64,000 bases of DNA from Mesostigma viride (lineage: Eukaryota > Streptophyta > Mesostigmatophyceae > Mesostigmatales > Mesostigmataceae), in NCBI GenBank assembly GCA_009746045.1, contig RPFO01000154.1, positions 7,492,693-7,556,692 on the forward strand, in the 5' to 3' direction. The notes below the pieces were generated by a model that saw only the letters and a list, made by a program, of their open reading frames with translations, was not told the DNA's origin and made no database searches. A program made the translations under genes and the position numbers. Shown here piece by piece: positions 2,111 through 62,991 of this stretch. Every line of letters begins with the position of its first letter. The first letter of the stretch is position 1.

Positions 2111-5100
2111 CTACTCTGGCACTGGCCCCTCTTCGGACATCATCTCCAGCAGCTCCTCGGCCGCCTGTGCCTGCTCTAGCAGTATGGCCGACGCGCGCAG
2201 GCCGCGCTCCCCCAACGAGCGGTCCACCCCGGCGAGCTGCTTGCGCAGCGGGTTGGAGGCGGCCGAGGCCGCGCTGGGCCCAGAGGGGGCGCCCGCGGCG
2301 GCCTTGCTGTTGCCGCCGCTCCTCCTGGCGCTGTTGGGCTTGCTGGAACTGGCAAACCCGGCCGGCTTCGGGGGCTGCGTGGGGATGAGGGAGCAGGGGA
2401 GCGGGGTTGTGGGGGAAGTAGGGGGGAAGGAAATCAAGGGTGAGCAAGCCATGGGTGGACAATGGACTGTGTTTATGATGGCCATGACAAAAGGTACCAC
2501 CATGATGAATGCGCATCAAGCCCTGCAGCACTCAGTCGTCCGGCTTGTTACAGCTTCCAGCAGTCAAGTGCTTGTGGCAGCTGCCGGCAGTCGAGTGCTT
2601 GTTGCAGCTGCCAGCAGTTACATGCTTATTACAGCTGCCAGTTTCCCCTCCAATTTACAATTTATAATAGCAAGCAGACATTTATCCGCGCCCTCAGACA
2701 CGAATGGCAAGTGAACACCTTTCAAAATGGCAAGTAAACTGAGACTGCACGAGCTAGCGGGTAAAGAGCAACGGAGCGGAAAGAACCGAAATGGGGATGG
2801 ATGATGTATGGCCACAATCATGGTCATGGTCCGTTCTGGTGGTGGAAGGCCACCAGGGGGTGAACGCAGAAGCCGCACTTACTGCTAGGCCCACAGATAT
2901 GAACCAACACTGCATTACACGCATTTATTACACACAGACTGTGTATAGTACACAGAAAACTGACATTGTACTGTACCGGTTTGCTATGCATGGACCATGC
3001 AAAATACCACGGCACGACCATAGACCGTGCCAAGTATATGAGACCGTACCATGTTTAGGACATTGTACGTGAAGACCATTTGCGATACCATGTCGGGGAC
3101 ATCGTACGTGAAGGCCATTACAAATGGGCTATGAATGTGCCTCCAACATGTGGGAGGTTGCCTTGCGAAGCCCTAGTCCGCGCTAGTACATCTGCGGAAG
3201 TCGTCGCAACCACCCTGTGCACGTGCACTAGCCCTTCGCCAAGCGACTACATGAATAAGCAAACCAGCCAAATATTTTAACCCAACATTGCCTCGCAAAG
3301 CCGTCGCCCACATTGGAGACTAGATGGGACAGGCAGGCAAGCCATCCCTCACGTGGTCAACCAACGGACAGCCTTGGAGTGGCATCACAGCGGATGACAG
3401 CGTAGGCCGGATACCACCAACACACCCTCTTGGGCCTTGGCCTTGCCCAGGGAACAGGAACGGCCAATGCCAGTGCTCCGATGACAACGGGACTTGAAGG
3501 GGTAATTGTGAGGATTTTGAAAAGTCGCTGTAGGTACCAAGGTCACTGTATGCTGTCGATACCAAAGTTGGCACCTTTAGTGAGACACGTTCTTTGATTC
3601 CTCTTTGATTATTGCAATGTCACTGTAGAAGCTGGCAGAGCCAGTGTAAAGCCACTGTAATCATATGGCTGCACACTGGCAGAATGGCCGGGTAAGATGT
3701 CAAGATGGCCTCACCAGAACGTGCATGCTCAGCCGCGGCATGCGCGGGGGGGGGGAGGGGTTGACCAGGTCCTAAGTCCGCTGAAGCGGGAGCAGCCATC
3801 CATGAGAGGCAATGGCATGGGCAGCCACGCCATCGGAAGAAAAAAATGCATGAGCATTGGACGGGGCAGCATGAGCAGGATGCCCCTTAATCACCTATGG
3901 CAATCGCTCCAGTACCAGTACGAAACAAACAAACAAACAAACAAAAGTAGGAAGCTTGACACATACTAAAAAAAACTTTAAGAAGAACTTCACGAGAACA
4001 AAGTACTGGGATTGGTTCTCATGTAGATTACGAACTTGTAGATCGATATGTTGGCAATAAGGGTTGAGTGAGTCTAATGATGGACCTACTACCAGAGCTG
4101 TTAAAGAGGAAATCCACCAATTGATGATGTTCCATTATGGAGACCTGCTAGGTAAACGAATGCGCAAGGAAAATATGCCTCTAAACTGTTCTGCCTCGTC
4201 AGCTGATCCCCCCCTCCGATGCATTTCCCATGCATCTTGGCCCGCCCCCCCCCCCCCCCCCCCCTCCTTCCCCGGAGCTTACACTCTCCGCCATCACTTG
4301 AACTCAATGGACACCAGCTCCTATAGCTTAAGCCCGCACACACATCTTAATCACCAGAAAAAAGACATGAATTCATAACATAACAAAAATAAAACCCTCC
4401 ACTGACAAGGCCTTTTTCCTGGGACTTCACCCCACAACTGCACATGTGCAACCCCCACCAGGTTTTCCCCCCTATTGGCTCGCGTGCCCTCAACGCCAGG
4501 CCAATCCAGGAGGTCCCGCTATAGCTCCACATTCCTACCACCCCTTGCTTGTCATCCCTTGCTTCACAACCGTCACTCCTTACCCCTTCTCACCCCTCCG
4601 CCCTCACCTGCATGCCCCCCTTGCGCGCGGCCTCACCTGCACGCCCCCCTTGCGCGCGGCCTCACCTGCATGCCCCCCTTGCGCGCGGCCTCCTCCAGGC
4701 TGGCAGCCACAAGCTTGGCGCTGTCGGCCATCTGCTGGGCAACGTTGCGGCTCATCTCCAGCTCCTGACAGCGTGCGAAACAATAAGAAACATTTGAATA
4801 ACAATGAGAAACATATCAAGAAATTAATATGAGTGACACGATGAGAAACAAATGACAACCGCAAACACACACACACACACAACACATGTAACACAATCAG
4901 CAAACAAAGGGATGATTAGAACAAAGCCACCCATCATTACATCAAGCACAACAACTGCTGCACAAAATGAGCTAGAGAGGCAGTGCGCATCCAGCTGATG
5001 GCCACGGCAAACTATTTTCACAAAGGCAACCTCAGTAACGTCATTACCAACGGTGGCAGATATGGACAAAATGCCTAAACAAGCCATAGCTCCAAGACAT

Positions 5101-8100
5101 GTTTCGCGAGTATGACCACACCTACAACAAAACACCACCAGCATCGCGGTACCATCCATCACGCAACCCATCACTACAAACAGTGTTTGCGGCGGCCATC
5201 TCCTCCTTACGCCCTCCATCATGGGCATCGTGGCCTGCCCGCTTGTGGCAGTGACAGAAGCTAGTGCGAGCTCGTCGAGGGCGTCCTCCTCTCGTTGTGT
5301 ATAGGGGTCGAAGGTTCCTTTATCGGTACCCACCTGATGCAGTCTAAGTGATAATTTATTAAGCATGGGCAAGGTACACAAACTGCATGTCCATACACCA
5401 CTTATAACCACCCACCGCGTTGGCGGCAGCCAGCTCCTCGGCGCGCTTGGCGGCCGCCTGCAGGTCGGACCGCAGCGACAGCATCTCCTCCTCCTTGGAC
5501 TCGAGCGCGTGGCGCGCGGCCGCCAGCTCAGCGTCGCGCGTTGCTAGGGTCGCGTGCAGCTTGGCTGCCTCTAGCGCCTCCCCTTCCAGCTGTGAGCCCT
5601 TCACCTGCCGGCGATGGAGATAAGGGGGGACGTGTCTCATAGTGAGTATTAATGAGACAAACCAGCGCAGGCATGGCATTACTATACTATAGTGACCATG
5701 GTATCCATGACGCAACCAGCGCAGGCAAGAAATCTATACCATAGAAACCATAGTGAGTGCGTTTGTAAGGATGGGCCTCCCCTTCTATCTGCAGGCCCTT
5801 CACCTGAAGTGGTTGGATCCGATCATTACAGGGGGCACATAGCCAGGATCCGCCGAGGTGGGGGAGGGGTTATCTATAGCGGGGATGTATACTCGGACGG
5901 GCCAATGCAGGTAGGACTTTTTTAGTGGGCACGTTTTCAAGGATAGCGACAGTAAATCTATGATAGTAAAATCTGATAGGCCGGGGCAGAGGGCGGTGTC
6001 TTGTAGCCGTGCACCTGGCGTGACAGGTGGTTAGGCTAAGGACGGCAAGGGTGTCATGTGCAGGGTGTCACGGGGCAAGCACCCTGGGCTTACAGGGGTC
6101 GTCGTGTACACGTACACGTATACACTTATGAAGTCCAACACACGCACGGAAACCGCGGTCCGTAGAGGTACGCAAATTGTCAAGGGGTACGCAAATTGTG
6201 TTGGAATATTAGTTCAGTTCAGCACACTACTATTTTTCTTCCCCCCCCCCCCCCCTCCCCGCCTCCCCACATCATCAGCGCACACGGCATTTCCTGCTAG
6301 GTAGGTCGTGCTTGTTTCAATGTCAATTCCCTTTAAGAGACGTTTCATTACAAAAATAAATAAATGTGTAATTACAATGTTTACAGTTTTGTCCCCGTCT
6401 GGGTTCGTGCCGCCAGAGGCCGTGCTACTTCCACCACCAAGGCCGGGCTACTCTGCTACACCTACGGGGACCGCGCCACCTAAATGTACACCAAGTTTAA
6501 GACCAGTTTAACTATCGCCGCGATCGAAAAAGTTGATCTACAGGCATGCTCCGGCAACAACCGCCGCGCTTGTGAGGTCATTCTAGGGACATGCTCCGTG
6601 TGCGCCAGGGGGTCACAGGTGCCACACGGGCGGATGCCAGAAAAAGAGGAGGACGGAGACGGCGGTCAGGCACAACGGCGCGCCCACCTGCGCGCACGCG
6701 GGACGTGGCAGGTGGGTGGGGGCCGCGGCGGGCACAGGAGGGACGAGATAACGTAAGGAGACCAGCGGGGGCACACGGAAGAACACACGCGCGGATATCG
6801 AGACGAAAAAGGATATCGCAGATAAACACCGCGGACGAGGTAAACACTAATAATAATTTGACACAGTGAAAAAGGTAAGCGGATACCGTTTTGGAGACAG
6901 TCTATCGTATGGGACCGAAATTAATACCAATGTCCTTTAACTGCCACAGTCACCCGGGGAACCGTCGTCGAAAATAAGGTCTTTAGAAGATGACGAGCAG
7001 CTGGGCCATGTGCTTGACTTACTCGACTGAAATCGTTGCTTTTCTGGTCTCCGCCAGAAAGGAAAATAGATTGGTTAAGAGTTTTTACTAAACAGCAATA
7101 ACAGCAAGGCAATGGTTTCTTTCACAAAAAAGGGTGGAGGTGATGCAGCATTGCTGACCGGTGGCTAGAAATTCTCCGTTGCAAGCTGCAAAGCTTACAA
7201 GCACAAAACAAGCCCCATTGCGAAGCCGGCCTGCCTAAATCCAAACCGTGCCGACCACATTAAGTACATAGCAGCTTCTCACTGGTCTTCAAACTTTGCC
7301 AGCGTACATGCAAGCCGTGCAGCACCAGGCAGTCCCCGTCACTGCTAGAGGACAGCAGCGATTGTGACACGCCAGCCGTGCGGAAAAGAGCGCGTGATAT
7401 TGAAGCGGCGTCGCCAAGGCCCACATGATCCACACGACCCAGCTGACCACGACTACCATAATCACGCTTTCACCCTCATAACTACATCACACTGTATCGC
7501 AATGCCCTTGCGCCCCCCAAAAGGTTGAGGTAGCCCTACAGCCTCCCTAGTAAGCCCCACCCGTCAACCTGGCGGCCCTGTTCTAGCCCCCCAACCTCTT
7601 CAACTCACAAGCAGCCAACCACCGCCTTACAATATCACCTCCTATACTATATGATAGATGATAGCCTTTCATGCATGGTGCAGGCATTATACTGTGCTAT
7701 ACCGATGTCTCACTTAATCCCGATACCAGCCATGACCTGCTCGCTCTTGCCCCATGTCCAGAGATCCTGACCGATGGCCCAGGTACCACCCTGCCACCGG
7801 CTACAGTGACCGCTACAATCACCACCAGCACCGAAAGGAGACCCACCGCGAGGCTGAGCAGCTCCTCCAGTCGCTTCTGATTGGCCGCTAGTTCGTCCTC
7901 GAGCGCCTGCGTCTGTGCCTGGTAGAGCATCTTCACCGCCTCAATCGTGGCCTGGTGTAGGTAGGGCAACGTGGACAGGGGGAGGATATGGGAAGTGGGC
8001 TCAGGTCACCCAACATGAACCACACTGGGCAGTGATTAACGTACAAGGAATATCGCATATATATACAAGGAATATCGCATCGCCCGGCCCGTTAAGTTTG

Positions 8101-11100
8101 TTTGTGATGATCAATACGTGAAAAGACTACAGTTACGTGTACATCAGGGCATCCAGGCACATCTGCTCGTGCATGTGAGTATTCATTGGCAAGGCAAGTA
8201 CGGCAGCTAAGGTGCATAGGGTGTACAGGGTTGCATACACAGGGTAGATCTGCAGCTTGGCAAATTTGCAACAACGAAATGCCAGCGTTTCCTTTCGAAA
8301 CAAATCACAACTGGAGGTTACAATCTCGGACTATCTGCACAGGCAGGCATGGAAGAAATTTGTAAGGGGGGCACTCTCCTTGCTTTTGCTCGCATGCCCA
8401 TGCCATGAGAACACTCACCAGATCGGTTTCCACCCTCCGAGACATGTCAAACGAAATCAGTTTTTGCTGCAGGTGCCACAGCCCACGGTGGAAACCCAAG
8501 GCCAGGACGATGGCATTGACACACAGGAGGGAGGACAGTGCAGCGAGAAAAACCAGAGGTAAGAGCTTCAGCAAACGTGCGTCAGCACTCATCAACTTGT
8601 ATGTATGATGGCAACGAATGGTACAAGTCCAAAATTTTGCCAAGCTTAGGCATTTACTATAACGCCGGCAAGTGTTGCCATGCATGCCGGCAAGTGCTAG
8701 CATGACCAACTGGATCGCCAACACTCACAACGGAACTTGAATTGCATGTGCAAGGAATGGGTGGATATTTACTGGCACTACGTGCTACCCGAAGACAATG
8801 CAAAACCGACAAAGCATGTCATGATATCCGCAGGATGGTCACAAGCATGGGTACAAGGTGAGACTCTCTGGGAAGCAGCCAACCCATTCTGCCACACACA
8901 TACAAGCCCAGCTCTCCAGTGGCTTCTATCACAGCCATCCACTGCAAGGCACAACAAGGGCAAAGCGCTTCCATGGCTGCACATCTACAGCACCCACCTG
9001 CGCCCCCTTCCAGTCGGTGTCCATGTTGCCGTGCACGCCGCCCGCGCACCTCCCCTCGTAGATAGCCTTGGACATCATCGTCAGCTCGTCGTTGCGCAGG
9101 GCTGGAGAAACAAGGCCCAATAGTAAACCAATGGGTCCAGGCCCGCCGAGGCAAGCAAAGGCAGGCATGAGAGTGAAGGCATTGGGCATCATGGTCAGCT
9201 CCTTATTGCACAGCGACTATGCGGAAAAGGTCGAACCATCCCAGGATCAAGGCAAGGTGAGGCAAGGATGGGACATGGGGCCTTGGGGGGGGATGTCATC
9301 ATCAAGGACTGCGCCGCACACGCTTTGGGGAAGACGATTAATGAGCACCGAAGTGATGAGCACCAAACCAGGGGTTGAAGTTGTGACCACAACAGATGCT
9401 GCACCGGAGCGACCGAGTTTTAACATGCCAAATTATTAACCAGGGAAAACAGTGATTGGGCATGGATGCAAGAGCAAGCGGTCATTGCACTGGACTCAAC
9501 CTAGCTGCGCCATGCTTGCCATGTACAAATGCCACGTACCATTCAGTCCATGTCATTGTTTTGCGGGCAACGCGGAAAAGATAAGGGCAGGCTCGAGCTA
9601 CCATGTTCCGGATTCTCCCGATTTCTGGCCTGCGCTGGTTGTCTCCTTGATGTATGCCACGTACTCTCTAGTCTGCTTGTCTGCTGGTCGCTGAACCCTT
9701 GTGCTGGTCACTACACTCACCCAGGAAGCGCAGGCGCACCATCTCCCAGCAGTCCATGTAAGGGTGCGCAATCGGGCGCGCCGTCTTGATCATCTTGTGT
9801 GCCTCCTGCTGGCTGTGGCCCTGCGAAGCGCAGAAGCGATGGGTGGCGACAGGGGTGGGGGCGCAGATGCCAGCATGAACGAGGGCACAGACACAAATTA
9901 GTACCAGTGTGGGCGCACGCACGCAACAACGTAGGCGCATGGAGGCAACATCTGGCCGCATGCGGGCAAAGGCGCGTGCGCATGTCGAAGCCAGCTTGAA
10001 CAGGCACCAGGCACGGGTCCAGGTTCGCCCCCCAGATGCCAGCATAAACCACATATACCAACATGAGCATGCTGACGCCACATGCCAAACTCAACAGCAC
10101 CCATTTCACAGCTCCGCAAGGCAACGATGCCTTGGATTCGACCGGTTCTTGGTGGAGTATTCTCAACTCACACTTGGGACTTGGTACTCCCACACTTCTG
10201 TCATCTCCCATCCCATCCCTCCCAAACACGTCCCAGATGATCCAACCATGGCAAGTCCCCACTTGACCGCCACATCGCCTCACGGGTGAAGGGCGCATGC
10301 CCCCTCTCCCCCGCCTGTGGCGCACACGTACCAGCGCATATACGCATATTCCGTTTTACAACATGGTCGTATTAATGGATTGGGCACGCACCAGCACAAA
10401 GGGGAGCTACCCTCGTCGGCTTGCTCACGCCCATGACCACGCACCAGCACAAAGTGGAGCTACCCTCGTCGGCTTGCTCGCGCCCATGACCACGCACCAG
10501 CACAAAGGGGAGCTACCCTCGTCGGCCCATGACCACGCACCAGCACAACGGGGAGCTACCCTCGTCGGCATGCTCGCGCCCATGACCACGCACCAGCACA
10601 AAGGGGAGGTACCCTCGTCGGCTTGCTCGCGCCCATGACCACGCACCAGCACAAAGGGGAGGTACCCTCGTCGGCTTGCTCACGCCCATGACCACGCACC
10701 AGCACAAAGGGGAGGTACCCTCGTCGGCTTGCTCGCGCCCATGACCACGCACCAGCACAAAGGGGAGCTACCCTCGTCGGCTTGCTCGCGCCCATGACCA
10801 CGCACCAGCACAAAGGGGAGGTACCCTCGTCGGCTCACTAGCATCCATGTATTTATCCAGGGGCAACGCACCAGCACAAACGTGAGGTACCCCAGCACGG
10901 TGAGCGTAGCGCGGTTGATGCCCGCGGTGCAGTGCACGTAGACCTTCTTGTCCAGCGCGCGCAAGGTGGCCAGCACGCGCACCGCCTCAGGGAGCATGCG
11001 CGCCTGGGGGGAGGGGGGAGGGGGGCGGAGAGCAGAGGGAACCCACCAGTGAAAAGCAGATGGAGCGAAGAACATTATTAGGAATAGGAATAGAAGGAGA

Positions 11101-14100
11101 GCCAAGAACAATATTAAGGGAGCGAAGAACATAGATAATTGTTAGGAAGTGAGCAAAGAATATGACTAGGAAGGATTAATGGGGGGGGAGGGCGGGAGCG
11201 CCAGCTACACCGTGGCGGGGCAAGGTACGACAGGGCATGGGGGGGCGAGGCAAGGATCACCAGGGCCAACGGGAGCCAGGGGGGGGATGGACGGGGCAAG
11301 GTGAAGTGAGGGGAGCAGCAGGGCAAGCACACAGGGAAGGCGGGAACATTTACATAAAATGGAACTTGCGGTGCCCCAAATCTGGTGCATGCATCGTGAA
11401 GCATTTGGGGTAGGAGGGGGTAAGAAGGGAAATGCCTTAACTCCGCTTCATTGGATGACAAAGGGGCAAGCGGAGATTGATGGAGGGCGCAGAAGGTGAC
11501 AATGGTGTGGTTGGAGGTTGGGGGGACAGGGAGCCAGCCCTCACCTGGTCGTGGTGGTCAAAATCTCGAACCGCCACGTGGCACCAGAGCGCGCCCCTCT
11601 GCGCCGCACGAGCACGGATCTCCTTGTAGGGAATCTGCGCCATCGAGAATGATCAGCAACGAAAAAAAAAAAAGGCCAAGTGACGAGAAAGGACCGATCG
11701 CACTACATAAAGAGAGTCAGAACTGCAGCCACAGAACCAGCGTAAGCAAAATAAGCAAAGTTAACCATAATAAGAAAGTTAAATATATTGTGACCAAAAC
11801 ACTGCCGGGTTACAGCAGAAATGCAAAGGGGCATTTGTGCACGGGCCATGAAAAGCAACCCAAAGCAATCATTGGTAGCGGTGCGGTGGAACGAGGCACA
11901 TTCTCGCCATACCATTATCACATCACAGTGCCACCTGTTGCCACCGTTGGCAATGCCCCACACAGCGCGGCACTGACACCTAATCAGGCCAGCGACCCAG
12001 GCGCTGCAAACAAGCAGCTATACCCTCAACAGGACAAAATCTACCAAACATGTGTATCTGCCACCATCCGTTCTTTACGGTACCAATGGAATGCAGGGCC
12101 TCCACTCAACTTCCCACCATACCACCCCCACACTGCGCGCCAAACGCCCTACTAAACCATTCACATGCAGCGCCTCAAACGTGCCACCAAACCACTCGCA
12201 TCCAGAGCCTCAAACGTGCCACCAAACCACTCACATGCAGCGCCTCAAAGCATCCCTGGGACTGGAGGCACAGGATTGCGTTGCAGCCGGTAGAGTCGAT
12301 GATCGTGTCCTGTGCAAGGAGCAGGAAAAGGCAGACATGGGCACAAGAAAAGGGCACAGGACGCAATAAGGGCGAATAGAAGCTTGGCCGAAGATCCCCA
12401 TACGAGGACAAGACAGGCAGTGAAGTATCCAGGGAGGATAAACACACAGGTGATGGACCTTGCCACGCCTGCCATTCTATTTTCCTCCACCGATAATAGG
12501 CTGCCGACAATTGGTGCACCCCAAAAATGCACCCTACTCCACAACCCAAGCCATACCGAATAGAAGACTTGACAACAGCGTGGCCTCCAGAAACACCACT
12601 AAACTTTCTCAAGCACCCACCCACCCACCCACCCACCCACCCACCCACCCACCCACCCACCCACCCACCCACCCACCCACCCACCCACCCACCCACCCAC
12701 CCACCCACCCACCCACCCACCCACCCACCCACCCACCCACCCACCCACCCACCCACCCACCCACACCTCCCCAAGACCACACATGCCGACGCGCCCCATT
12801 CTTGGAGTACTGCGGTCAAGAGACGACATGAGACCTTGGGACGGATGGCTCTCCCCACACCATCTGTCCCCCAGCCACCCCCAGCCCACCCCACGGAGCA
12901 ACACCCTCCTGCCCACCCCACGCGCACGTACCACGTTCTCGGTGGACCGCGGGCACGAGCCGACATAGACCTCGGGTGTGATGCCACTCCAGTTGAGCGT
13001 CCACTTCCACGAGTCGATCCCCTTGTCCTCCTCCGCGTCATCGCCCGACGCCTTGGACTCCTCCTGCGCGTGTGCAGCGGGGGATATGTTGTGGCACGAG
13101 AGACTAAAGTGAGTAGATTGCGGAATAGATACAGACAAAGTTACTTTGTGGAACGCGACTGCATTAGCTGATTACATTGTGACTGCATGGAAAGTGACTG
13201 CAATAAACCGTGAATGCATCAGTTAAAAAGCAAAGCAGCAAATGGATAGATCACAAAGGCGCACTAGGTCCGGCTCCCACGAAGCCCAGCACAAATAAGG
13301 CGCATGTAGAGACCAACTGCAGATCTTCTCTCAGTGTGGAACGAGAAATGGTGTGGAGTTCAAACATTTACCATCTGTATACATCTTGTTCAATTTCGAA
13401 TTCCTTTTTATCCTCATAGGCTTGAATATGATGTTATATTATGAGGGGGGATATCGCAGGGATGCAGCGCGTGATCCTGATGGGATGCGGGGAAGACAGG
13501 CGATGCAGGCGGCGAAGAGAAAGGGAGGGAGGGAGAACACCAGCAACTTTGGCTAGCAGTGGCCGATAGATACTGACACAAATGAGCAAATCTTACAATG
13601 CTTCGAGCAGGAAAATCAGCAAATGCACAGCCAACTTTCGGAAAGGCTGCCGGGACATGTAAGGGGAAAGAAAAAACAAATGCAGGCTATCAGCACGGTG
13701 TACAAGCGCGCAGCTGCCAGTCCTGGCGGGCAGTTCTAAAGGCCACAGAGGCAAGTGAATTCAAAAGAGTGCAGGGGCGAATTCAATTATAAATTGCCAA
13801 GGCTGCCCCTGCCACCGCTACGACCTCAGCCCAAACCGATCAAGAAAAAAAAGGGCAGAAAAATGCAGCATCGAATACATGCACGCACCCTCCTCAAGAT
13901 TACATAGAGCACCAAATCCTGACAAGAAGCCATGATATACTGGAAACATACGAATGGCTGGCTGCGGCGCGGGATAGATCCATAGAACGACAGACTTTAC
14001 TACAGACTTCACGACAGATGCGCTATCGAGGCGACAGGATGGCCGCCGTCAACGGCAACGCAACATTACCATCGCTTTGGCGTTACGTCATACCTCTCGT

Positions 14101-15699: not shown

Positions 15700-18600
15700 A
15701 TGGCGACTTCACGAGGGCTGGAGCTGAAGCTCCATCCTTTGGTCATAATTAACGTATCGGATCATCATACGCGTGTCAGGGCACACACTAGCAAAGGTCC
15801 TGTTAACCGCGTTATTGGTTGTTTGCTTGGGGCGCAAGCAGGCAGAACAGTGGATATATCGAACTCTTTCGAGCTGATATACAAGATCGTGGACAATGCT
15901 GTCGTGGTGGATAGGGATTTTCTCCAGAAGAAAGAGGCTCAATATAAGAAGGTGCGTTGACCTCGTTGACCTCGACCCGGGCAGCCTTTTCGGCAAAACG
16001 TCTGCCACGTGTCCGTTCTTTTTGTGAGGAAGTCCACCGTTTTGAACAAAAATCTTGCACGCGAGCACAAGTGATTTCTATCCTTTTTCAACATGTTATT
16101 ATGCCTGGTGGCATTACAGGCATGTCCACAGTATTTTGCTCTCAGGCGCCATATACCTTGTGCTTACCGCGTTGTGGAACTTGTTTAGATCTTTTCTCTC
16201 AAACGCCTGTGCTGAAAACAGGCCTTTTTTGTCCCTCGTTCTTTTTTGGGAACTAGCATCTGTTATTCTGAAAGGGGCGGTATTGTTTGTCCTAATAGTT
16301 ATCTTGCCCCAAGTATCTATTGCCTGGTGTGTCATCTGTTTGTTCTCCTCTTGCTATCTATGGTAAGCATCGCTATCAACCGCCAAAGGTGCTCCCTGAC
16401 CTGGATTTTTTTTATCTCTTATGGTACCGCCTCCTCTCCCTACTTATCGATCTTCCAACTGACCTTACGAATACGTTTACCCCCCCGGTGTTCCCCAAGG
16501 TGGGCATCCACATTCCTTACATGGTATACAAATGTTTACAGCGTTTTTCAATACGGTTCATAACAACTACGTCCCCCAAGTGTTCCCCAAGCTGGGTATA
16601 TCACTAGCAAGCATTTCTGACGATTGTCGCCGTCTTTTCGCCGTCTCTTATTATTATAAAGCCCCAGGGCATCCCCGCGCTGGACAGATCCGACACCACT
16701 GGAACCAACTACTCTTGCTACTACGTTACCTTACAAACCTTGTCCGTCTTTGGCAGGTTTTCCCCAAGCGGGGCATCCCTGTGATCCGCAACAATTTCCA
16801 ATTATTATCACCCTCTTTTCTTGTTACTGACATCCCCGTTGGTTTTTCCCAACTGGACATCGACATTACCACCAACAAATACCTATCCACACAAACATCC
16901 ATGCGCCACCCCCAGGCGTTCCCCAAGCGGGACATTGGACACGCTACGAATGCCAGCGCTATCCCCACCATGTACAACTGGAACTTGCATCCTCCATGTG
17001 TTCCCCAAGCGGGACGTCATCAGCACTTCTGATGCCAACGCTTCCCCCAACAAACCTTACGGACCTATGCCCCCACCCCACCCCACCCCACCCCACCCCA
17101 CCCCCCTTCCCCCCCAAGCTGGACGTATACATCTATGAGACAACCAGCGCAGCCCAGAAATCTGGAGAATCCGGACCGTGGTAGCTCGCGTTTTTTAGTC
17201 GTTCACGATTATGGATATGAATGGACGTGGAAATGTGTAGCCTTGTTCGTTGAAATTATGGCTTGCTAACGCTAAGAGCGACTTGATGACCTAGGCGGTG
17301 GGGCCGGAAACATATTGCGTGATCAGGGCGTGTGTTTCGAGCCTAATTGGCCGGGAGTGTCTAGTGGTGAGCACCATTGCGGCAATCGCTCTCCTGCATT
17401 TACGAGGAAATACCCGCAAATGGAAAACCACTGAAAAGGTCTAGCGTATATATATACCCCAAGCTGGACATGTACATAATCTACCGCTTATAAGGCCAAC
17501 GTGTCCCCCAACAAACCCCAATAGATACATATACCCCCCAGGTGTTCCCAACCGGCACGTAATCAACACTTCTGACACATGTCCCTCAGCAAGACCCTAT
17601 GCATGCATCCACCCCCCAGGTGTTCCCCAAGCTGGACATCGTGGGCTGGTACTCCACCGGCCACCGCGTGCAGCCGGACGACCTACCCATCCACCGGCTG
17701 ATGACGGAGCGCAACGAGAACCCCGTCTACCTGCTGCTGGACCCGAGCGGCGCGACCGGTGGCGGCAACGTGGGCGGCTCGCTGCCCGTGACCCTGTACG
17801 AGAGCGAGGTGCACCTGGTGGACAACGTGCCCAGCATGACGTTTGTCAAGGTCGGGTATAGTGTGGCCACGGTGGAGGCGGAGCGCATCGCGATCGAGCA
17901 CGTCGCGCACATACTCCCGCAGGTAACACAGCGTGGTGGTCCTGCCGGTATGCCGAGACAATTACCAGAATATATCCTGATGCTTGCGCAGGTTGGAATG
18001 CTGTTTCTAGCTATGGGTCATATCTTTCTTTGATTGGAGCTTTATTCTTCTTGTATGTAGTCTATCAAACTTTGACTGGTGATGGTATATAGTGGAAACA
18101 TGGTGGTTATCATATAGGCATTATGGGTATCGCTAGTTAGGCAATAGTGTGTGAGTTAGTTAGGCAATAGCGTGTAAGTTAGTTAGGCAATAGTGTGTGA
18201 GTTAGTTAGCCAAAAGCGTGTGAGTTAGTTCGGCAATAGTGTGTGAGTTAGTTTGGCAATAGTGTGTGAGTTAGGCAATAGTGTGTTAGTTAGTTAGGCA
18301 ATAGTGTGTGAGTTAGTTTGGCAATAGTGTGTAAGTTAGTTTGGCAATAGTGTGTGAGTTAGTTTGGCAATAGTGTGTGAGGCGGAGTGTATGAGGCGCA
18401 TCGTGATGGACCGCGTCGCACTTGTACTGCCGCAGGCGGGTGCCGATGATAGGTGAGTCACTGTACCGTGGTGCAATGTGTGGCGATCGGTGTGTGGCAG
18501 TATTGAGGGTTTATGGGCGGTAGCAGCAGCACATCTGTCAAGGCGGAGTGTATAGTGTGGATGGTTGGATTGACTACCTTGCTCTGCTTGCTGCCGATTT

Positions 18601-20355: not shown

Positions 20356-20428
20356 TATGAAGTGAGACAACTATGCCTGGACGCATGGCGATCCAACGTA
20401 TATCACTCCATATTAGTTGTCAAAGCCT
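20356..20428. repeat. Dispersed repeat with a 42-bp perfect inverted partner at 24728-24769
   Basis: The 42 bases starting atgaagtgagacaactatgc are present as an exact reverse complement at 24728-24769. A diverged copy lies at 772-825. The family is short and its full extent is unclear. Confidence 0.75.
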
Positions 20429-39436: not shown

Positions 39437-39527
39437 TTTTAATTTTGTTCTTGCTTCAGACCTTCAAGGTTTTTCCTTTTTCCTTTGTTGCTTTCATCTA
39501 GATTCCTATTCCTTTACTTAATTAAAG

Positions 39528-41272: not shown

Positions 41273-41315
41273 CCTGGACAGGTCCTTAGATAGTACCCCA
41301 GATAATAATTTTTGC

Positions 41316-44740: not shown

Positions 44741-44742
44741 CG

Positions 44743-49001: not shown

Positions 49002-49573
49002 TGTTACGTCGCGTAACAATTCGTTGTAGTTACGGACGTAAATTAGGTCCTTGGCCTCGGTTGTTCCTAGGTTTACGTGTAGTTCTAGCTGGGACATGAT
49101 TGTCCTCGTAACAGTACTGTGGTATATTGGGTGCCTTTGGGCGCCGCGCCGCGTACTTTATTAGTGGTCCTTATCCTTTGGTAGAATGTAGTGGACCGGC
49201 GTGCATCTGTGCACCTGCCTGTGTTTCTGTGTTTCTGCAGGCGAGGGCCAGGTCGGCCCGAGCCTGTTGGACCGTTGGTGACCATTTATGCACGTTCCAC
49301 TCCTTGTGTGGTCACTCGGCGTGTGTTAAATGAATTAACACATATTAGCTTGGGTCACGGCAGTGTAGTTGTGTTTCCTTCCTCTATTCCTGGAGTAAAC
49401 GGGTTTGGTTAAATGGCTTATGGCGTATTACAGTAGCACATACGTAAATGCATTGAGATCTGGATCGTCTCGTTCGTCTTTCGCTAGGGGTTTAACTAGA
49501 GGCGGCCTTACTAGTCTAGGTAGCATTAGGCCAGGTAGAGGTAGAGGTGGCGGTAGAGGCTTGCGGCGTAACA
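49002..49573 (+). repeat. 3' LTR of element A
   Basis: 572 bp, TGTTACG...CGTAACA, uninterrupted. It shows what the 5' LTR looked like before element B inserted. Confidence 0.95.
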
Positions 49574-51033: not shown

Positions 51034-54000
51034 ATGGCTTTTTCATCAGCAGATAGTATCCCCATTTGCGCGGCAGTCATTGCGCTTCTCCTGTCGTTGT
51101 GGGCGAGGCATGTGTCGCCCGAGTCCGCCGAGCCCTGCTCCTTTCGTATACCTCCGCACGGAGCTATTCTCGTTTTCGGTTTGACCGTTTCCGCGTACCT
51201 TTACGGCAAATTGCCGCATTGGAAAGCGAGCTCATTACCTGGCCCCAAGCCGATATGGCTTCTTGGCAACTTGGCTGACATAACTGTCGAAGGCGGCATG
51301 GGCGAAGCTCTGGCGAAGTGGCGGACACTGCATGGGAATTTATTCAAGGTTGATTCAGATGCTCCCTAGGCTTTGCCAATCTTTCTGTCCACGAAAGTCA
51401 TCTTCCGTATCGTTCACCTCATCTATTTACGATCCGTTGCCGTCTCTCGACTGAGTTGAACTTAAACGTTTGGTTCCGTGCTCTGCGTCACGTTTGTCTT
51501 TGATGCTCGTGTTTTTTCCGGTTCAAACTCACAAACTCAGTTTTTCTTCGGGCGACAAGTAGTTGTGGTCGTCACGGACGCAGAGCTGGCGAAGGAAGTC
51601 ACCGAAAAGAAGTTCCGGGTTTTCGCCAATAGGTAATGATAGTGTGTCGCCCTTGGGCGTGGGCGTGGGCGTGGGCGTGGGCGTGGGCGTGGGCGTGGGT
51701 GTGGGCGTGGGGGCGGGCGCGGGCATGCATGCACATATAGTGCCTTCAGATGGGTGCATGTGGGCAAGTGCGCATGTGGGCAGCGTGTTGCCCATCGCGG
51801 CTATCCTTCCTTGACACTCGTCCTGGACCTCCACGGCATGCATGCTTGGTGCATGCTAATGCCACCCGCACTGTGGTCGGCCACTCGCCCTTGTTTTTTG
51901 TCCCATGCAGGCCACGGCTTCCGTTTATCACCAAGTTCAGCACCCTGGGCGTCGTGTTTTCTGAGTAAGTTCGTCCAGGCTGCATCCCAAATCTGTAGCG
52001 AGCGGTGATGCATATGGAGAAGAGCGAGGCGGACGCTCCATGCCTGGCCTGCAGCGCATGGTGGTGGGGCATGGCCTGCAGCGCGTGGTGGTGGGGCATG
52101 GCCTGCAGCGCATGGTGGTGGGGCATGGCCTGCAGCGCATGGTGGTGGGGCATGGCCTGCAGCGCGTGGTGGTGGGGCATGGCCTGCAGCGCATGGTGGT
52201 GGGGCATGGCCTGCAGCGCATGGTGGTGGGGCATGGCCTGCAGCGCGTGGTGGTGGGGCATGGCCTGCAGCGTATGGTGGTGGGGCATGGCCTGCAGCGC
52301 ATGGTGGTGGGGCATGGCCTGCAGCGCATGGTGGCAGATGCCACTGCTCACCACAAGACCCTGACCGCTCATCACTGTATACGCCGCCACTCATGACACT
52401 ATACGCCACCGCTCCTCACAGTACATGCCACCAATTGTCACCATACGTGCCGCAACTCATCAATGGATTCTCTTGATGGTGCTGGTCCACATCCCATCCA
52501 TGGACCGTGTGAATGCCAGGGGGGCGGACTGGTCCAGCGCCCGCAACGCACTGCTGCCGCTGCTGCATAAGGTACGGACAGGGGGACATGGCGCGACACG
52601 CAGTCAGGCCACATGGTAGAGCGTGCCAGTAGTATATGCCAGCGGCCGGTGTACGGTTCTCCGGGGCATGTGTGGGCTGGCCCATAGCATGCGGCGGTGA
52701 TGCATGACGCTGCTATACGAGGAACAACCATTGGGCCTTAGCCATGCATGGCACTGTGCAGAGTGAGTCCCTTGTGGCCTGCGTCATCTAGACCAGTGAG
52801 AGAAGCCGGGGGGGGGGCTTCCCTTCTTCTCATTGTGTATAGCGGTGTGCATAGCGGGCGTTGAAGACCTAATCACCGGTGCTCCCTGATTCTCACGTAG
52901 TTTCAATTTCAATTTAAATGGCGCTCTGGGAGGCGGGGATCATCAGCACTGGGTCGCAGCCCTTGAGTCCAAGCCAGTGCTTTGCGCACGTGTGCCAAGT
53001 TCTGGGTCTATTGGAGCTTGTATCTCATGGCGTGTGCTGGTATGCAGCCTTGTGTCACTGCACTGGTGTGCACTGTACACCCGCTCAGAGGATGTTACAT
53101 TTGCTTCTCACCAATCTGAGCCACGCGTTTGGAACCTGTCTCAATGACGTGCTGCTGGCCTTGGGTATGCCCTTGCATCCATCGTTGCTGGCAGAGCATG
53201 CTCCAAGACTTCCTACCCGTCATGGACCGTGCCGTCGGACAGCTGTCGGTCTGCCTGCGCCTGCTGCCCCCGGCATCGTCGGTCGATCTCAACGAGCTGT
53301 TCCACAAGCTGACGATTGACATCATCGGTGACGTGGCGCTGGGCGTGCAGTTTGGCCTGCTCAGGGACGTGCACCGGAAGATGGTGGCAGCGCATGCGCC
53401 GGCCGCCACCCTCGGCCTGAGCAGCGCTGCCGGTCATCGGACGGCACCAGCTGGGAAAACTGGTGCAGGGGTTGGCAACGTGCCATGCGCCCTCGAACCG
53501 TCCAATAGCGCTGGGGCTCCGCTTGAGGGTGCGGATGACAGCAGCAAGGCCGCTGGTGCAGTGCCAAGCTCAGAGAGTGTCGAACGGCCATCGCACAGGG
53601 GCCCAACAGGAGATGGGAACCGCAGCCAGCGGCTCTATGAGCTGCTCATGGAGTGGGTGCGCTTGAGCAACATCGAGGCATCAATCTCCATGCCACTCAT
53701 CCTGCTGTTTCCGCCGCTGGGCCGGCCGCTGCGGTGGCTGCTGTCGTACGTGCCAGGCACCAACGACTACCGCTTTCGCTTGAACCAGGTGTACGGCGTC
53801 CGCACATACGTGCAGATGTGCATCGACCGCCGGACCGCCATGCAGCTCCCGAGGCGTGTGGCAGATGCGAGTGACGCGGGCAAGAAAGGTGAGGAGTGCG
53901 GACCGCGTGCCGAGGGCGGTCGGGCAGATCCCTCTGGGGACGCGGCCTGGGACACCGGTGCCACCGCCACCCGGCCTGATGCTGGCAAGGATGCCATGAC

Positions 54001-54709
54001 GCTCCTTCTCTCTGCCGTCAACAAGGAGACCAAGCAGCCCTTCTCGATGGAGAGGGTGGCGTCGCTGGCCACGGAGCTGATCGCCGCAGGCTCCGACACC
54101 ACGGCCAACACGCTGGCGTTTGCGCTCTACTGCGTGAGCGGGGCACCCCACGTGGAGGCCAAGTTGGTGGAGGAGGTGCTTGCCCCAGGCAGGGGCCCCG
54201 GCGTGCCCATCAGCTACGCGGATTTGGACACCGGGTTCCTCTTTGTGGAGGCAGTGATCAATGAGGCGTTAAGGCTGTACCCCCCGGCATCCACCATGGC
54301 TCGCGTTGCGCAGGAGGACACGGTGATTGGAGGCCACAAGGTTGCGGCGGGGACGTGGGTGTTTGTGCCAGCGCTGCCCATGAACAAGGACCCTGCGATC
54401 TATCCTGACCCTGACGTGTTTCGCCCTGAACGGTTTCTTTATGATAAGGAGGGCAGCGGGAAGGCAAAATTCGCTGGCCAATTCAACCCGTTTGGCATGG
54501 GGCCCCGCATGTGCCTAGGCCACCGCATGGCCATGGTGGAGGCGAAGTTGGTGCTTATTCGCCTGTACCAAAGTTTCTCGTTTGTTAGGGCACCTCCGAC
54601 CAGCCTAGAAGAGCCGTTAAAGCTCTTTCACACGGTCGTCACCAAGCCCAAGAACGGAGTTTGGATGCATGTGCTTACAAGGGCTGAAAGGACTGCAACA
54701 AATATCTAG
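51034..54709 (+). CDS. Cytochrome P450, CYP711/MAX1-group-like
   Basis: Exons 51034-51348, 51541-51632, 51911-51964, 52520-52571 and 53195-54709 join in phase to about 675 aa. The N-terminus has a membrane anchor and the proline hinge [15 protein letters not shown]. Other landmarks: [18 protein letters not shown], the I-helix AGSDTTANT, the K-helix ExxR in NEALRLYPP, the PERF block (FRPERF) and the haem loop [13 protein letters not shown] with its cysteine ligand. The protein is about 170 residues longer than usual because of two disordered, Gly/Ala/Ser-rich inserts in the last exon (after [11 protein letters not shown] and after [10 protein letters not shown]). Spacing and wording ([21 protein letters not shown] near the end) recall CYP711, the strigolactone-pathway MAX1 clan, but substrate is unknown. 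It is an ER-bound monooxygenase needing a P450 reductase. Confidence 0.95.
51654..51722. repeat. (GTGGGC)n repeat in P450 intron 2
   Basis: About eleven hexamer copies in tandem. They give Arg/Pro and Gly/Val open frames that are not genes. Confidence 0.95.
52040..52335. repeat. 27-bp minisatellite in P450 intron 3, about 11 copies
   Basis: The unit contains cctgcagcgcatggtggtgg and varies at one or two positions (cgcatgg, cgcgtgg, cgtatgg). As 27 is divisible by three, all six frames can stay open, producing 9-residue periodic ORFs. Confidence 0.96.
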
Positions 54710-54864: not shown

Positions 54865-55125
54865 AGACCGGTAGGATTGCGTGTGCCCATCCATCCATCC
54901 ATCCATCCATCCATCCATCCATCCATCCATCCATCCATCCATCCATCCATCCATCCATCCATCCATCCATCCATCCATCCATCCATCCATCCATCCATCC
55001 ATCCATCCATCCATCCATCCATCCATCCATCCATCCATCCATCCATCCATCCATCCATCGGGGTTAATGCTCCGTGACTCCCCAACGGAAGCACGAGTTT
55101 AATTAATTAATTAATTAATTAATCC
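54865..55125 (+). repeat. LINE 3' end (T1) with expanded (CATC)n
   Basis: The flanks agaccggtagga and gttaatgctccgtgactcc are those of the T1 LINE 3' ends at 21665-21730 and 55763-55825, where only three or four catc units occur. Here the tract has about 43 units (54888-55060). A TTAA tail follows. Confidence 0.93.
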
Positions 55126-56160: not shown

Positions 56161-57973
56161 ATCAACATCACTCCGTTGGGAGTAGATGTAGCACATAGCC
56201 CTGAGAAGGGGCATATGGCTTTTAATGCATTCTAGGCTACTTCATGCAAGGGTGGGAATGTAAGCTACCCCTGCTCTAGGTGCACCAGGGCACCCGCACC
56301 CTCATGGTCTATCACGCTATGCCCGGGTAAGGGGGGAGCATGCCTGTGAGGGGGAAGATCATCATGGCTATACAAAAAACTAGAGCGTGGCATCTCAGCA
56401 GAGAGCAGCTCTCTGCATGGGCACAGCATTACTAAATAAAACTAGGCATCGTCTGGAGTGTGGCTCATCATAGGCACACATGTACATGATTAAATAAAGC
56501 GCGTGGCTTAGCTGGAATAGGGCCTCTAGGAGGCGTACATGTACATGGCCACGGTCTATCTATTCTACACTACTACTGCTGTATTCCCCTAAGCTGGGGC
56601 GTCTGGAGTCGCTGGGGCCGCGGGGGTCGCCTGCCAGGGCTTGTGGCCCGCGACGTAGATGGCCGCCCCCTTCCAGTACACCGGCTGCCCTGCCTTGGTC
56701 CGCCGGAGCTGGAGGTAGGTCGGCCATAGCTCCCGTCGCCGTTGTTGCTGCGCCAGGGTCAAGTCGTCATCAAGGGTGAAGAGAGTCTTCTCGAGCCGCT
56801 TGCGGCGTCTGAGAAAAGAAATCTTGTCCGCCGGGGTCTTAAAGGTGAGAAGGAGCGGGGGCGGCCCTGCCTTACCCCGCGCGCGGGGAAGGCGGTGGGC
56901 GGCCAGCTCGATCTCACCAGTAAGGCCCATGCGATCAAGGATTTCTCTCTCAAAAGCACGCGCAAGCTTCTCGGAATTCTCACCTTCCTCCATCTTGAGA
57001 TTCTTGACAATGACGTTGAGGCTGCGCTTGGCGAGCTCGGCCTCCTCGCGGAGGTCAAGCGTCTGCCGTTGAAGCTGGGCTGCGACGGCGGAGGTGGTGG
57101 AGGTGGTGTGTTGCTTAAGCATGTCCGCCCAGGTGGTGATGGGAGGAGCATCGCCGGCCAGGCCAGCCGGGGCTGGCTTGGCGGCAATGTCCTTCACCGC
57201 CTGGGCGGTGAGGCCTGCGGTGTTCTGCAGAACCTCGATAGCGATGGCGTTGTCCTTAAGACGCTGGTCGATGTCGCGGAGCTGGGCGGTGATGGAGTCG
57301 GAGGGGGGGGGGGGGTGGAGGCGAGGAGGGTGGCGGTGGCGGTGGCGGTGGCGGTGGGGATTTTGGGGAGCTCAGCAGCCATCTTACGACCCAAAACTTC
57401 CATGTCGCAAGCAAGGGGCGTCACATGCTGTGAGAGGAGGCGGAGGAGGGCGAATTCGGTCAAGGGGACGGGTTGCCAGAGGTCCGCGGAACAGCGTTGA
57501 AGGATGGAAAAGAGGGCGACAAGCTGAAGGCGCGGTCGCGACCAGCCAGACAGGTCAGCTGAGCGGAGCTGAAACTGGCCGTCAGACTGGCTGCGGAAGC
57601 ATTTGTGGCGTTGGAGGCGTTGGCACAGGTCAAGAAGGGAGGCATACGACCCATAAAACAGGAGCTCCAGCATCCGGATGTGTGGCCTGTCGAAATAGCC
57701 AGGTCTGCGGACGTCGAAGGTGGAAAATAACTCATCGACGTCAAAGTCGGTCTCAGACCAGCTAGGTTCGGTGGGGCGGCTGCGTTTGGGCTCGGGCGAG
57801 GCTGAAGGCGAGGCAGGAAGCCCGGGAGGGTGCTGGACGACCACCAGTGCGCGACTAGTGTCACCACTGCCTTCCGGCCCTGATGGCGAAGCTGCAGCCG
57901 GAGCTGCAGACGTATTTTCATTGCCTAACGCATTCGCCAGGCTGCGTTGCGTTGTTGTGCGTTTGCTCGTCAT
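56161..57973 (-). CDS. LINE ORF1 (RNA-binding protein-like) with T3 3' end, no ORF2
   Basis: ORF1 runs from ATG 57973 to the stop at 56589, in two frames joined across a C-homopolymer (plus-strand G-run at 57303-57314), so a one-base slip there probably explains the break. The N-terminal half has disordered Ala/Pro sequence, then FDRPHIRMLELLFYGSY and further helical sequence. The C-terminal half (56589-57197) has RSLNVIVKNLKMEEGENSEK, a AAHRLPRARG block, PPPLLLTFKTPADKISFLRR and TLFTLDDDLTLAQQQRRREL. This order is that of the RNA-binding and C-terminal domains of LINE ORF1 proteins. About 430 bp after the stop the element ends with the actccgttgggagt hairpin and a TTAA tail. No reverse transcriptase lies between. 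Confidence 0.78.
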
Positions 57974-58185
57974 AATAGCAGTTCGCGTAATAGCTGCAGG
58001 CGGGTCACAATACTGCGTTACAGCTGTAACCGTTTATAGTAGCAGATGCGCCTAGAAAAGATGCATCGGTTGCAAGTGATCTGACGGAATTTGGGGCTCA
58101 GACGCGAAAGTTCTGAGCTCCGCCGTCAGCCATGGCTACCTCGTGGCTCGTGGCATTTACGTACCGATCCTCATTAATTAATAGA
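57974..58185. other. Upstream flank of the ORF1 element
   Basis: This should contain the 5' UTR of the minus-strand element. No other feature is seen. Confidence 0.4.
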
Positions 58186-59638: not shown

Positions 59639-62600
59639 TCACGGGGCGGGGGAGCACTGGGCGGGGATCGTCGGCCCCTCTGCGATCTCGATGAGCGGCT
59701 TCCATTCAAACCCGCGGCTGGAGCCGACCTCCACCACGACGCGCACGTTGGGCACGAGGCCAGGCAGCAGGGAAAGATAGCGCAGCTCGGCGCGGGAGAG
59801 CACCTGCGACAGACGTACACCGACGAATATTATCAGATAAGAACACAAAGCGTATTAGTAACAAGGGCTGCTAGCTGTTCCATACCATATTAGCTACCGA
59901 CAAAAATGAGAATCTAAGAAACTAGAATGAAAAACCAAAGGAGCAGGGTACAACAGGATACCGCATGTTGCGTTTATGGACACGTGTGACAACACGCGCA
60001 AATTAAGTGTGTAACCGCGGGCTAGCTATTATTACATTTATTCATTGACTAGCCACGCAGGGTTAACCATGGCTACAGGTTCAGCTGATTGATCCAGCGG
60101 CGCGGCATCGTTTGGGAGCGCGTAGCCACCCCTCGAAGCTCCTTGCCTTCAGGCGGCTCCCCGCAACGCCACCGTGCCGTGCAGCTCACGATCGCAGCAC
60201 GTGCCTCGTGGCCACATCACCAGCAAGGTCGATGAGAGACAGCCTGCTTATCTGGGGGACTGGGTCGCCGTACGCTGGTATGTTGCGGCAAGTCACCGCC
60301 GAGCGTGCACGCAAACGTGACCTGCCTAGTTCAGTACTCACGCCCCCCCCAACCTGCGCCACACAGACGACAAGGATTCTAAATAAAAATACTTGGTCTT
60401 TGTCATACCCCGCGGCGCCTTGATGACCCAGAGCATGGGAGATAGGTAACACCAAGCTGTTGTTACCTTGCCCAGTGACAGCTCATACCCGTGCAGGAAG
60501 GTATTCAATAATGACACATTTGTTTCCCCCACCATGCCCTCGATGATCCAGAGAACCTTACACCTTATACGCTACTAGCGGCGTGTTTGGGGTTCTTTAC
60601 TGGGCTCCTCCCCATGCCAGTCTAACTTGGATTGGTAAACAGAAAGTGCGTTTGCTGCCCTCACCTTGCCCTCAATGATCCACAGCACCACGCCCTTCTT
60701 GCTGTCGGGGATGACCGACAGCCGGTGCTCCAGCAGGCCCGGCTCAAAGAACATGGTCAGCGCCTGGCGGCCCAGGTGCGGCTGGTGGGGAAAGACAGGG
60801 GGGCAAGAGAGGGGGAGGGGGGGGGGGGAAGAGAGGCAGGGGAGCACAAGGTGAACGTGGGAAACAGGGGGTGTTGCAGGTTAGAATACAGCGAGGACTA
60901 GGGACGCTAAGCAACACGCATACCATTGTAAGGGTACTGAGGGTCACAAGGCACCAAAGAGGAGGACAGTTGCACATACGAGGAGAGCTATTCCCGTCAT
61001 TTAGCACTTCAACATCACAGGGCCGCTGTGGCAAGACTGTTAGATGAGAGCATTTGATAGTAGCGCGTATACTGCAGAACATTGGGGTACAAATAAGCAC
61101 AGACGGCTTCCCCATGCTAAAATTGGATCATCGAGGTAATGACAGCCTTTCAGTGGCATTTGAACGGTGCCACAACTTACAAAACCCTGACCTTCCAGGT
61201 GATGGTTAGAAAAAAAAAGAAAAAAAAAAGGCCCTGTATCCGACACAGACGGCAACTCTCCAAGCAGACAGGCAGGGGGCCAATGGGCTGACAGCAAGGC
61301 GTTGCTCGAGCACATAATGTGTGTCTGTCCCCACCACCACACAACACAGATACGAGGCCACACAGCATAATAGGGTTCCAAGCATGCTCCCAGTGGGGGT
61401 ATCTTTTTGATCTTACAAGAGAAAAAGGGAGAGAGCGAAGGAAATGGGGAAGGCAGAGCGGGAAGGAACACGAGGGACAAAGAAAAGAGGAGAACAGGCT
61501 GGGTGACTTGGCTCGTGACGGCAAAAGCACTCCCAAACACAGGGACTTTCGAAACAGAGAAACCCAGCAAAACTTCTCAAACAACAAGAGCATGGCAGGG
61601 TTCACATTCTCGCGCATACTGACCGAAACCCTTGCCGAGTGCGACTCTTTTATGTGACTAGAACTGACTAAGAACATGGAGAGTATGTGCACATCCTGCA
61701 AGTTTTCTAAAGCCCCTAAAAACTCTAGTACATAGAATAATGAGTCAAACAAACCTGGGAGGACAGGACCTTTCCCCCCCCCTTCCCCTTTTTATGTCTC
61801 GATTTTCATCCGACTATATCATTAAAGCCTTAACGCAAGCACAGCCACACTGGCCCAATGTCAGGCAAGCAAGGGTGTTTCTGCCCAGCAAGAACCACTA
61901 GTGAATGCTTGTTATGATGATGGTGATGAGGTCTGTAATACGACCTATACCGCACAACAGATATGACGGCGACAATAACAGCCATTAACACCAACCAACA
62001 TCAATAGGGCCCCAACATCACGAAAACGCCTGCAGGCAGCTGCACAGGCACTGGAAAGGAGTAGGATAAGGAAGAAAATGAACTTGGCCACGGCAATGAC
62101 AGCCGCCACATGGATGATAAACTTGTGAATGTATCATGGGGGTGAAGCCACACACAAAAAAGATAAGCTTGCTCTGATGTCGAGGTAAACCCAGACTATA
62201 GACACACCCAATAAACCACAACGGTGTAATAGAACAAGCAAGACCTTCACAAGCCACATCCCCCCACACCAGCATGCTAGAAAGCAACATGCATTACCGA
62301 CAAGAAAATAATCCTCGACGGCCTTGGATCATGGGAACGCCCAGCCATACCACCACGCTGACAGGTGAGCTACAACATCAGCTGCAAATGGTACATATAC
62401 AGTTTTTAAGGGGCTGTAGCCATCTTCCAATAAAATTTCAAGGCGAACTACCCAAAAACTTTCTGATGGGAACCCTCTGCAACTTTACGCACTTCTGGAA
62501 AAGGGCATTTTCACTCCTTTCACAGAGTTTCAGTGACAGGATAAGGCGTTAAAGCTTACCGGCGTAACACCGTGGGTCCTCATCAGGTAACCTTCCAAGT

Positions 62601-62991
62601 CGCCGAGACCCTTCGCCGTCAGGTTCAAAATGTGGAATCCCTCTCCCTTAAGCCGAGAAGCATAGCGACCCTCATATCCGCCCTCTGGGGGGGTGAAGCA
62701 ACCTACAGCGCCATAATTCTCGACATCATCCAGCCACTGTCCCAAGTCTCCCTTGATCAGATCCCCCCCCAGAAACTGAGCTAGACCCGCCTGCACCGTT
62801 AGGGTGGCCGCTTGTGGCAGAGCAGCCTTGGCTGGAGCGAGATGTAGCCTGGAGGCCGGAGCGCCCAAGAACGCACTCTTTTTAGAATTCGCAGCGGGCT
62901 GAGCACCCGAGGATGCCGCCTGCTTTGCTGGCCGCGGGATTGAAAGGGATCCAACTGGCAAGACAGCTGATCTGCACACGGAAAACGCCAT
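59639..62991 (-). CDS. NDHN: NAD(P)H-quinone oxidoreductase subunit N, chloroplastic
   Basis: Exons 62991-62560, 60781-60665 and 59803-59639 are all phase 0 with GT-AG introns (1778 and 861 bp), giving 237 aa; land-plant NDHN is about 210. NDHN is a nuclear-encoded stromal subunit of the chloroplast NDH-1 complex, which drives cyclic electron flow around photosystem I. The first 65 or so residues (Ser/Ala/Lys/Arg-rich, few acids) fit a transit peptide. Family signatures: GGDLIKGDLGQWLDDVENYG, EGGYEGRYASRLKGEGF, TAKGLGDLEGYL in exon 1; PHLGRQ and GVVLWIIEGKV across exon 2; LSRAELRYLSLLPGLVPNVR, VVVEVGS and WKPLIEIAE in exon 3. The start is the first ATG in frame. Intron 2 holds two degenerate copies of the exon 2 donor. 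Confidence 0.96.
60400..60562. repeat. Two intronic copies of the NDHN exon 2 donor edge
   Basis: On the minus strand the exon end is CTGTGGATCATTGAGGGCAAG before GTGAGG. Copies read CTCTGGATCATCGAGGGCATG before GTGGGG (60530-60560) and, weaker, CTCTGGGTCATCAAGGC (60415-60435). Spacing is about 125-130 bp, so a degraded tandem duplication. Confidence 0.75.

What the first reader, a model, noticed from the sequence alone, without database searches (positions are those of the whole stretch)
2111..62991. Recurrent tandem duplication of exon edges with their splice sites in three unrelated genes
In the phosphatase gene, CSN6 and NDHN, introns contain degenerate or near-perfect extra copies of the adjoining exon edge plus splice site. 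I count eight cases: donors at 4601-4694, 10380-10865, 12155-12250, 18383-18440 and 60400-60562; acceptors at 5773-5806, 9178-9217 and 16300-17619. Copy number runs from one extra to about ten, with units of 29 to about 200 bp. Ordinary minisatellites have no reason to be centred on exon junctions, so this suggests a shared process. Candidates are duplication between AGGT-like proto-splice sequences, which is a proposed route of intron creation, or template switching near junctions. It would lengthen introns and create competing splice sites.
Basis: partly seen in the sequence, partly recalled or inferred. Interest (0 to 1): 0.9.

Follow-up and report, generated by a model that had tools for sequence, protein, structure and literature searches.

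The report
Exon edges duplicated into Mesostigma introns
In three genes of the green alga Mesostigma viride, introns carry extra copies of the neighbouring exon's edge together with its splice site, likely left by small tandem duplications that crossed the exon-intron border and would lengthen the intron without changing the protein.

Summary
All eight cited copies are in the window, on the gene's strand and in the flanking intron. A systematic test finds copies at 9-10 of 32 exon edges of the three genes, against 3 of 480 edge-to-other-intron pairs. It adds two donors, one strong and one borderline. The DNA is Mesostigma viride. Three cases are young tandem arrays (29, 35 and 53 bp) at donors; the rest are decayed. 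That a process seeks out junctions is not established. A fourth gene, a cytochrome P450, has 0 of 8. With it, 9 of 40 edges compare with 5.4 expected from intron-interior repeats (P = 0.023). Allowing for the exon being a slowly changing reference, the excess is not significant (P 0.14-0.27). Intron birth by AGGT duplication has no support in 16 introns tested. Best reading: ordinary tandem duplications that straddle junctions, tolerated because the extra copies become intron. Unresolved: several old copies match the exon edge better than their spacers allow, and otherwise repeat-free introns still hold edge copies. The genome-wide test could not be run.

The parts
4602..4692 (-). Young tandem array, 29-bp unit, across the DSP exon 11 / intron 11 donor (exon edge at 4666); extra donors at 4637 and 4608
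   Evidence: TRF 96% matches; 95% over 65 nt, E 2e-21; donor score equal to real. Exon 11 is my prediction, not in JGI model P0121
10385..10835 (-). Young tandem array, 53-bp unit, after the DSP exon 5 / intron 5 donor (exon edge at 10872, 37 bp beyond the TRF array); nine extra donors 10806 to 10392
   Evidence: TRF 92% matches; 85-93% over 27 nt for eight copies listed; nine copies, all GT, score equal to real donor
12154..12249 (-). Young tandem array, 35-bp unit, across the DSP exon 3 / intron 3 donor (exon edge at 12235); copies at 12200 (GC) and 12165 (GT)
   Evidence: TRF 88% matches; E 8e-15
16376..17558 (+). Eleven decayed copies of the CSN6 exon 2 acceptor edge in intron 1, mostly 75-109 bp apart with one gap of 345 bp
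   Evidence: seven at E<0.01; P 2e-7. Four copies (16389, 16668, 17107, 17452) are weak on their own
18361..18436 (+). Decayed copy of the CSN6 exon 2 donor edge in intron 2, 513 bp from the real edge
   Evidence: 68% over 78 columns, E 1e-6; P 7e-5
5775..5817 (-). Decayed copy of the DSP exon 10 acceptor edge in intron 9, 199 bp from the real edge
   Evidence: 77% over 43, E 8e-6; P 9e-8; exon 10 is my prediction
9179..9213 (-). Decayed copy of the DSP exon 7 start in intron 6, about 114 bp from the real edge; acceptor AG not kept
   Evidence: 80% over 35, E 1e-5; P 6e-5
5173..5205 (-).
   Evidence: Alignment; P 6e-5; exon 10 is my prediction
12742..12854 (-).
   Evidence: 58% gapped, E 0.005; P 2e-4, 0.0018
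60519..60557 (-). Decayed copy of the NDHN exon 2 donor edge in intron 2
   Evidence: 82% over 39, E 3e-7; P 3e-7
60418..60435 (-). Second, weaker copy of the NDHN exon 2 donor edge, about 115 bp beyond the first
   Evidence: 18-nt alignment; significance not computed
51034..54709 (+). Cytochrome P450 gene (exons 51034-51348, 51541-51632, 51911-51964, 52520-52571, 53195-54709), used as a hold-out: no edge copies
   Evidence: Model; PDB sequence matches; 0 of 8 edges, 0 of 176 mid-exon windows

Best explanation
Introns of three Mesostigma viride genes contain extra same-strand copies of the adjoining exon edge and splice site, likely left by local tandem duplications (slippage or unequal exchange at short repeats) whose unit straddled the exon-intron border and whose extra copies would be spliced out as intron. 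Shown: position and strand of the copies, the tandem structure of the young arrays, and, for seven edges, that the exonic part is conserved in homologues and so is the source. Inferred: when a unit straddles a junction, one complete edge and splice site stays in register, so the protein is unchanged and the rest is intron, whereas duplications inside an exon are usually removed by selection. The intron would therefore grow and the exon would not; repeated rounds would make arrays (nine and eleven copies), and neutral decay would leave relics such as those in DSP introns 6, 9 and 10, CSN6 intron 2 and NDHN intron 2. No special attraction to junctions is needed: the exonic reference changes slowly, so old copies there stay visible longer than old copies of intron interior.
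For: Copies are local, same-strand and above chance: 10 of 32 and 9 of 32 edges, 0 of 32 on the reverse strand, 3 of 480 in other introns. Young cases are tandem arrays, and minisatellites also sit in intron interiors of the same genes. CSN6 intron 1 copies are evenly spaced and nine of its eleven spacers, the ones tested, are related above shuffles (z 4.1). The six mid-exon hits of 285 lie in three exons that bear an edge copy, within about 100 nt of that edge, as expected if units straddle the junction. Old copies lose splice dinucleotides (AG kept in 5 of 11 CSN6 copies: four rows plus one by the register). Edge residues are conserved in homologues for CSN6 introns 1 and 2, DSP introns 2, 3, 5 and 6 and NDHN intron 2. 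After correcting for the conserved reference, no significant excess at edges remains (P 0.14-0.27).
Against: For five old cases the sequence between edge and copy should resemble that beyond the copy; P(predicted <= observed) is 0.36, 0.040, 0.035, 0.015 and 0 of 200, so three or four of five fit poorly. In CSN6 intron 1 spacers have decayed more than the exon-derived core unless indels are as frequent as substitutions. In introns nearly free of interior self-copies, 4 of 20 edges still have one, or 4 of 26 with three P450 introns. Young arrays touch junctions more often than unit-limited random placement (3 of 10 against 0.44, P 0.008). No age gradient with distance was seen in CSN6 intron 1.
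Confidence: 0.6

Rival explanations
1. A junction-directed copying process: short segments (about 25-75 nt of exon plus 0-14 nt of intron) centred on the splice site are re-copied into the intron, for instance by template switching during DNA synthesis or repair near exon borders.
For: Spacer homology is missing or weaker than predicted in three or four of five old cases (similar). Old copies stop 0-14 nt into the intron in the single-copy cases. 4 of 20 edges have copies in introns with interior rate at or below 0.03. Young arrays 3 of 10 at junctions, P 0.008.
Against: The young cases are tandem arrays with their own units. CSN6 intron 1 copies are evenly spaced. DSP intron 6 fits whole-unit duplication (P 0.36) and DSP intron 9 has weak spacer homology (p 0.006 against shuffles). 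The simulations did not model large insertions, deletions or later minisatellite growth. P450: 0 of 8.
Confidence: 0.2
2. The copies are kept because they work: decoy or competing splice sites, or copied exonic elements, that tune splicing of the host intron.
For: In DSP introns 5 and 11 all 11 copied donors have the score of the real donor, and one (10806, +66 nt) would add 22 codons in frame. In CSN6 intron 1 the exon-derived core is better conserved between copies than the spacer. Intronic minisatellites affect or accompany splicing elsewhere (PMC3948165, abstract start in search listing only; PMC4039745, passages).
Against: Splice dinucleotides are not kept in many old copies (AG 5 of 11 in CSN6 intron 1; GT lost in DSP intron 2, CSN6 intron 2 and the second NDHN copy). 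Young copies are too young to show constraint. Use of 10 of the 11 full-strength donors would frameshift or stop early. No RNA data.
Confidence: 0.08
3. Intron birth: these introns arose by tandem duplication of exonic segments carrying AGGT (Rogers/Hellsten model), and the edge copies are its traces.
For: Tandem duplications that include splice sites are present.
Against: 0 of 16 introns tested show homology between upstream exon end and intron end, or between downstream exon start and intron start (lowest p 0.073). By direct reading, array ends share GAGG and TTTG, not AGGT. Copies lie one-sidedly within much longer introns (541-2291 nt).
Confidence: 0.03
4. Assembly or selection artefact: misassembled repeats, or cases picked from many chance similarities.
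Against: Shuffle, reverse-strand and other-intron controls; decayed copies are unlikely to be assembly errors. JGI protein models of the same species agree with my exons for NDHN, DSP exons 1-9 and CSN6 except a 9-nt acceptor shift.
Confidence: 0.03

Closest known systems
Internal tandem repeats at exon-intron boundaries of human genes in segmental duplications (PMC2812944; passages read)
   Same: Minisatellites of about 30-bp units straddling exon-intron boundaries, in numbers that alter gene structure; the authors mention exon and intron elongation.
   Different: Human paralogues with transcript evidence of changed splicing and new introns; here a single-copy algal gene set, no transcript evidence, both donors and acceptors, and many old decayed copies.
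[quoted passage not shown] potato RdRp case PMC4974935, passages read; Drosophila cases PMC2891723, passages read)
   Same: Local tandem duplication that includes splice signals; extra sequence removed as intron so that the protein is unchanged.
   Different: Here existing introns are lengthened; none of 16 introns tested carries the signature of birth by duplication.
Introns from tandem arrays (Zhuo et al. 2007) and internal gene duplication with intron creation (Gao and Lynch 2009), seen only as reference entries
   Same: By title, tandem arrays or internal duplications linked to splice sites.
   Different: Not read; the comparison rests on titles and on what PMC4974935 says of Gao and Lynch.
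Intronic minisatellites linked to splicing (TERT intron 6, PMC3948165, listing only; C. elegans CeRep25B, PMC4039745, passages)
   Same: Tandem repeats within introns near alternative splicing.
   Different: In what I saw those units are not described as copies of the exon edge; no splicing effect is shown here.

Membership tests
Tandem repeats at exon-intron boundaries (PMC2812944) | Minisatellite array overlapping an exon-intron boundary | tested here: met
   DSP introns 3 and 11 overlap the exon by TRF coordinates; DSP intron 5 ends 37 bp short but carries the edge copies
Tandem repeats at exon-intron boundaries (PMC2812944) | Copy number varies between paralogues or individuals | not testable with these tools
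   No second Mesostigma strain or paralogue was available
Tandem repeats at exon-intron boundaries (PMC2812944) | Transcript evidence for altered splicing | not testable with these tools
   No RNA reads are held; JGI protein models use the outermost sites for the edges they cover
[quoted passage not shown]
   0 of 16 introns, lowest p 0.073; the four P450 introns were not tested
[quoted passage not shown]
   Direct reading of two arrays only: shared ends GAGG (DSP intron 11) and TTTG (DSP intron 3), from the alignments
[quoted passage not shown]
   No orthologous gene structures were fetched
Junction-directed copying (template switching) | Copy consists of the edge alone, without a tandem unit | tested here: inconclusive
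   Spacer homology lower than predicted in three or four of five old cases, large indels not modelled; young cases are whole-unit arrays
Functional decoy splice sites | Copied splice dinucleotides preserved in old copies | tested here: not met
   AG kept in 5 of 11 CSN6 intron 1 copies; GT lost in several old donors

The most novel reading that the evidence does not exclude
Mesostigma has an active process that re-copies exon edges with their splice sites into the adjoining intron (edge-only and junction-centred), a general engine of intron lengthening and of competing splice sites in an early-branching streptophyte.
Probability: 0.15. Interest if true: 0.8.

Novelty: new variant of a known kind. 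Interest (0 to 1): 0.42.

Why it matters
If general, introns would carry a readable record of their own growth: because the exon is held still by selection, decayed copies of its edge date old duplications that intron sequence alone cannot show. It would offer one cause for the long introns of Mesostigma (mean 1142 bp, PMC6947507) and a way to measure the rate of intron lengthening. The young arrays are also natural constructs, with nine equally strong donors in a row in DSP intron 5, for asking how a spliceosome chooses among equal sites.

Tried and rejected
Age gradient (older copies farther from the junction) in CSN6 intron 1: not seen. Constraint on copied splice sites: not supported. AGGT intron birth: 0 of 16. 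A first spacer test with a fixed divergence was replaced by one conditioned on the observed edge score; one search also held DSP intron 2 (fits, but its spacer holds the CACC repeat) and the two NDHN copies against each other (no homology), which one search left out. tRNA and Rfam scans of the window found nothing. Rows dropped: one wholly exonic array (18773-18817) and arrays with units under 20 bp or score under 50, two of eleven spacers (one over 100 nt, one CCCCA-rich); simple repeats were masked. In one search one row (12091) is a spurious match and two rows (NDHN 60532, CSN6 17544) are one and two bases out of register; the counts here use the registers. These two registers were also used (NDHN; CSN6), where one or two bases matter little.
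Full report
What the window is. Predicted CSN6, DSP-family phosphatase and NDHN proteins match Mesostigma viride models: P0001 (99%, jgi/Mesvir1/5543), P0121 (100% over 67% of the query, 5541) and P0241 (100%, 5547). Gene models were built by hand from reading frames and splice signals: DSP on the minus strand with 12 exons (2111-14393), CSN6 on the plus strand with 4 (15700-19756), NDHN on the minus strand with 3 (59650-62991). They are free of internal stops and have third-position GC of 0.87-0.91, as many of the other exons do. They are not confirmed by homology: the homologues listed cover at most 71% of my 545-residue query, and one search used P0121, which lacks these exons. JGI places the CSN6 exon-4 acceptor 9 nt downstream of mine.

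Noticed in passing
51034-54709 (+): Cytochrome P450 gene with five exons; intron 3 carries a 27-bp minisatellite (52045-52334, 10.7 copies) that is not an exon-edge copy.
   Followed up: yes
19507-19530 (+): CSN6 exon 4 has two AG acceptors 9 nt apart (19517 and 19526); the JGI model P0001 uses the second.
   Followed up: partly
2111-5604 (-): Three further DSP exons with a coiled-coil-like sequence are predicted beyond the end of the JGI model P0121.
   Followed up: partly
18134-18436 (+): The 23-bp minisatellite in CSN6 intron 2 runs directly into the decayed exon-2 edge copy and shares an ATAGTGTG stretch with the exon, so it may have grown from that copy.
   Followed up: no
18773-18817 (+): A 21-bp, in-frame duplication lies wholly inside CSN6 exon 3, the length class that selection would tolerate in an exon.
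   Followed up: no
12614-12764 and 54887-55059: Two perfect tetranucleotide arrays (CACC about 38 copies, CCAT about 43 copies), unusually long and pure.
   Followed up: no
20361-21532, 39522-45952, 56589-58033: Reverse-transcriptase-like and pol-like open frames of retroelements between the genes; named by eye from the translations, no family search was run.
   Followed up: no
32507-32527 with 37981-38001; 38485-38511 with 49533-49559: Identical short repeat arrays recur about 5.5 kb and 11 kb apart, which could be paired long terminal repeats.
   Followed up: no
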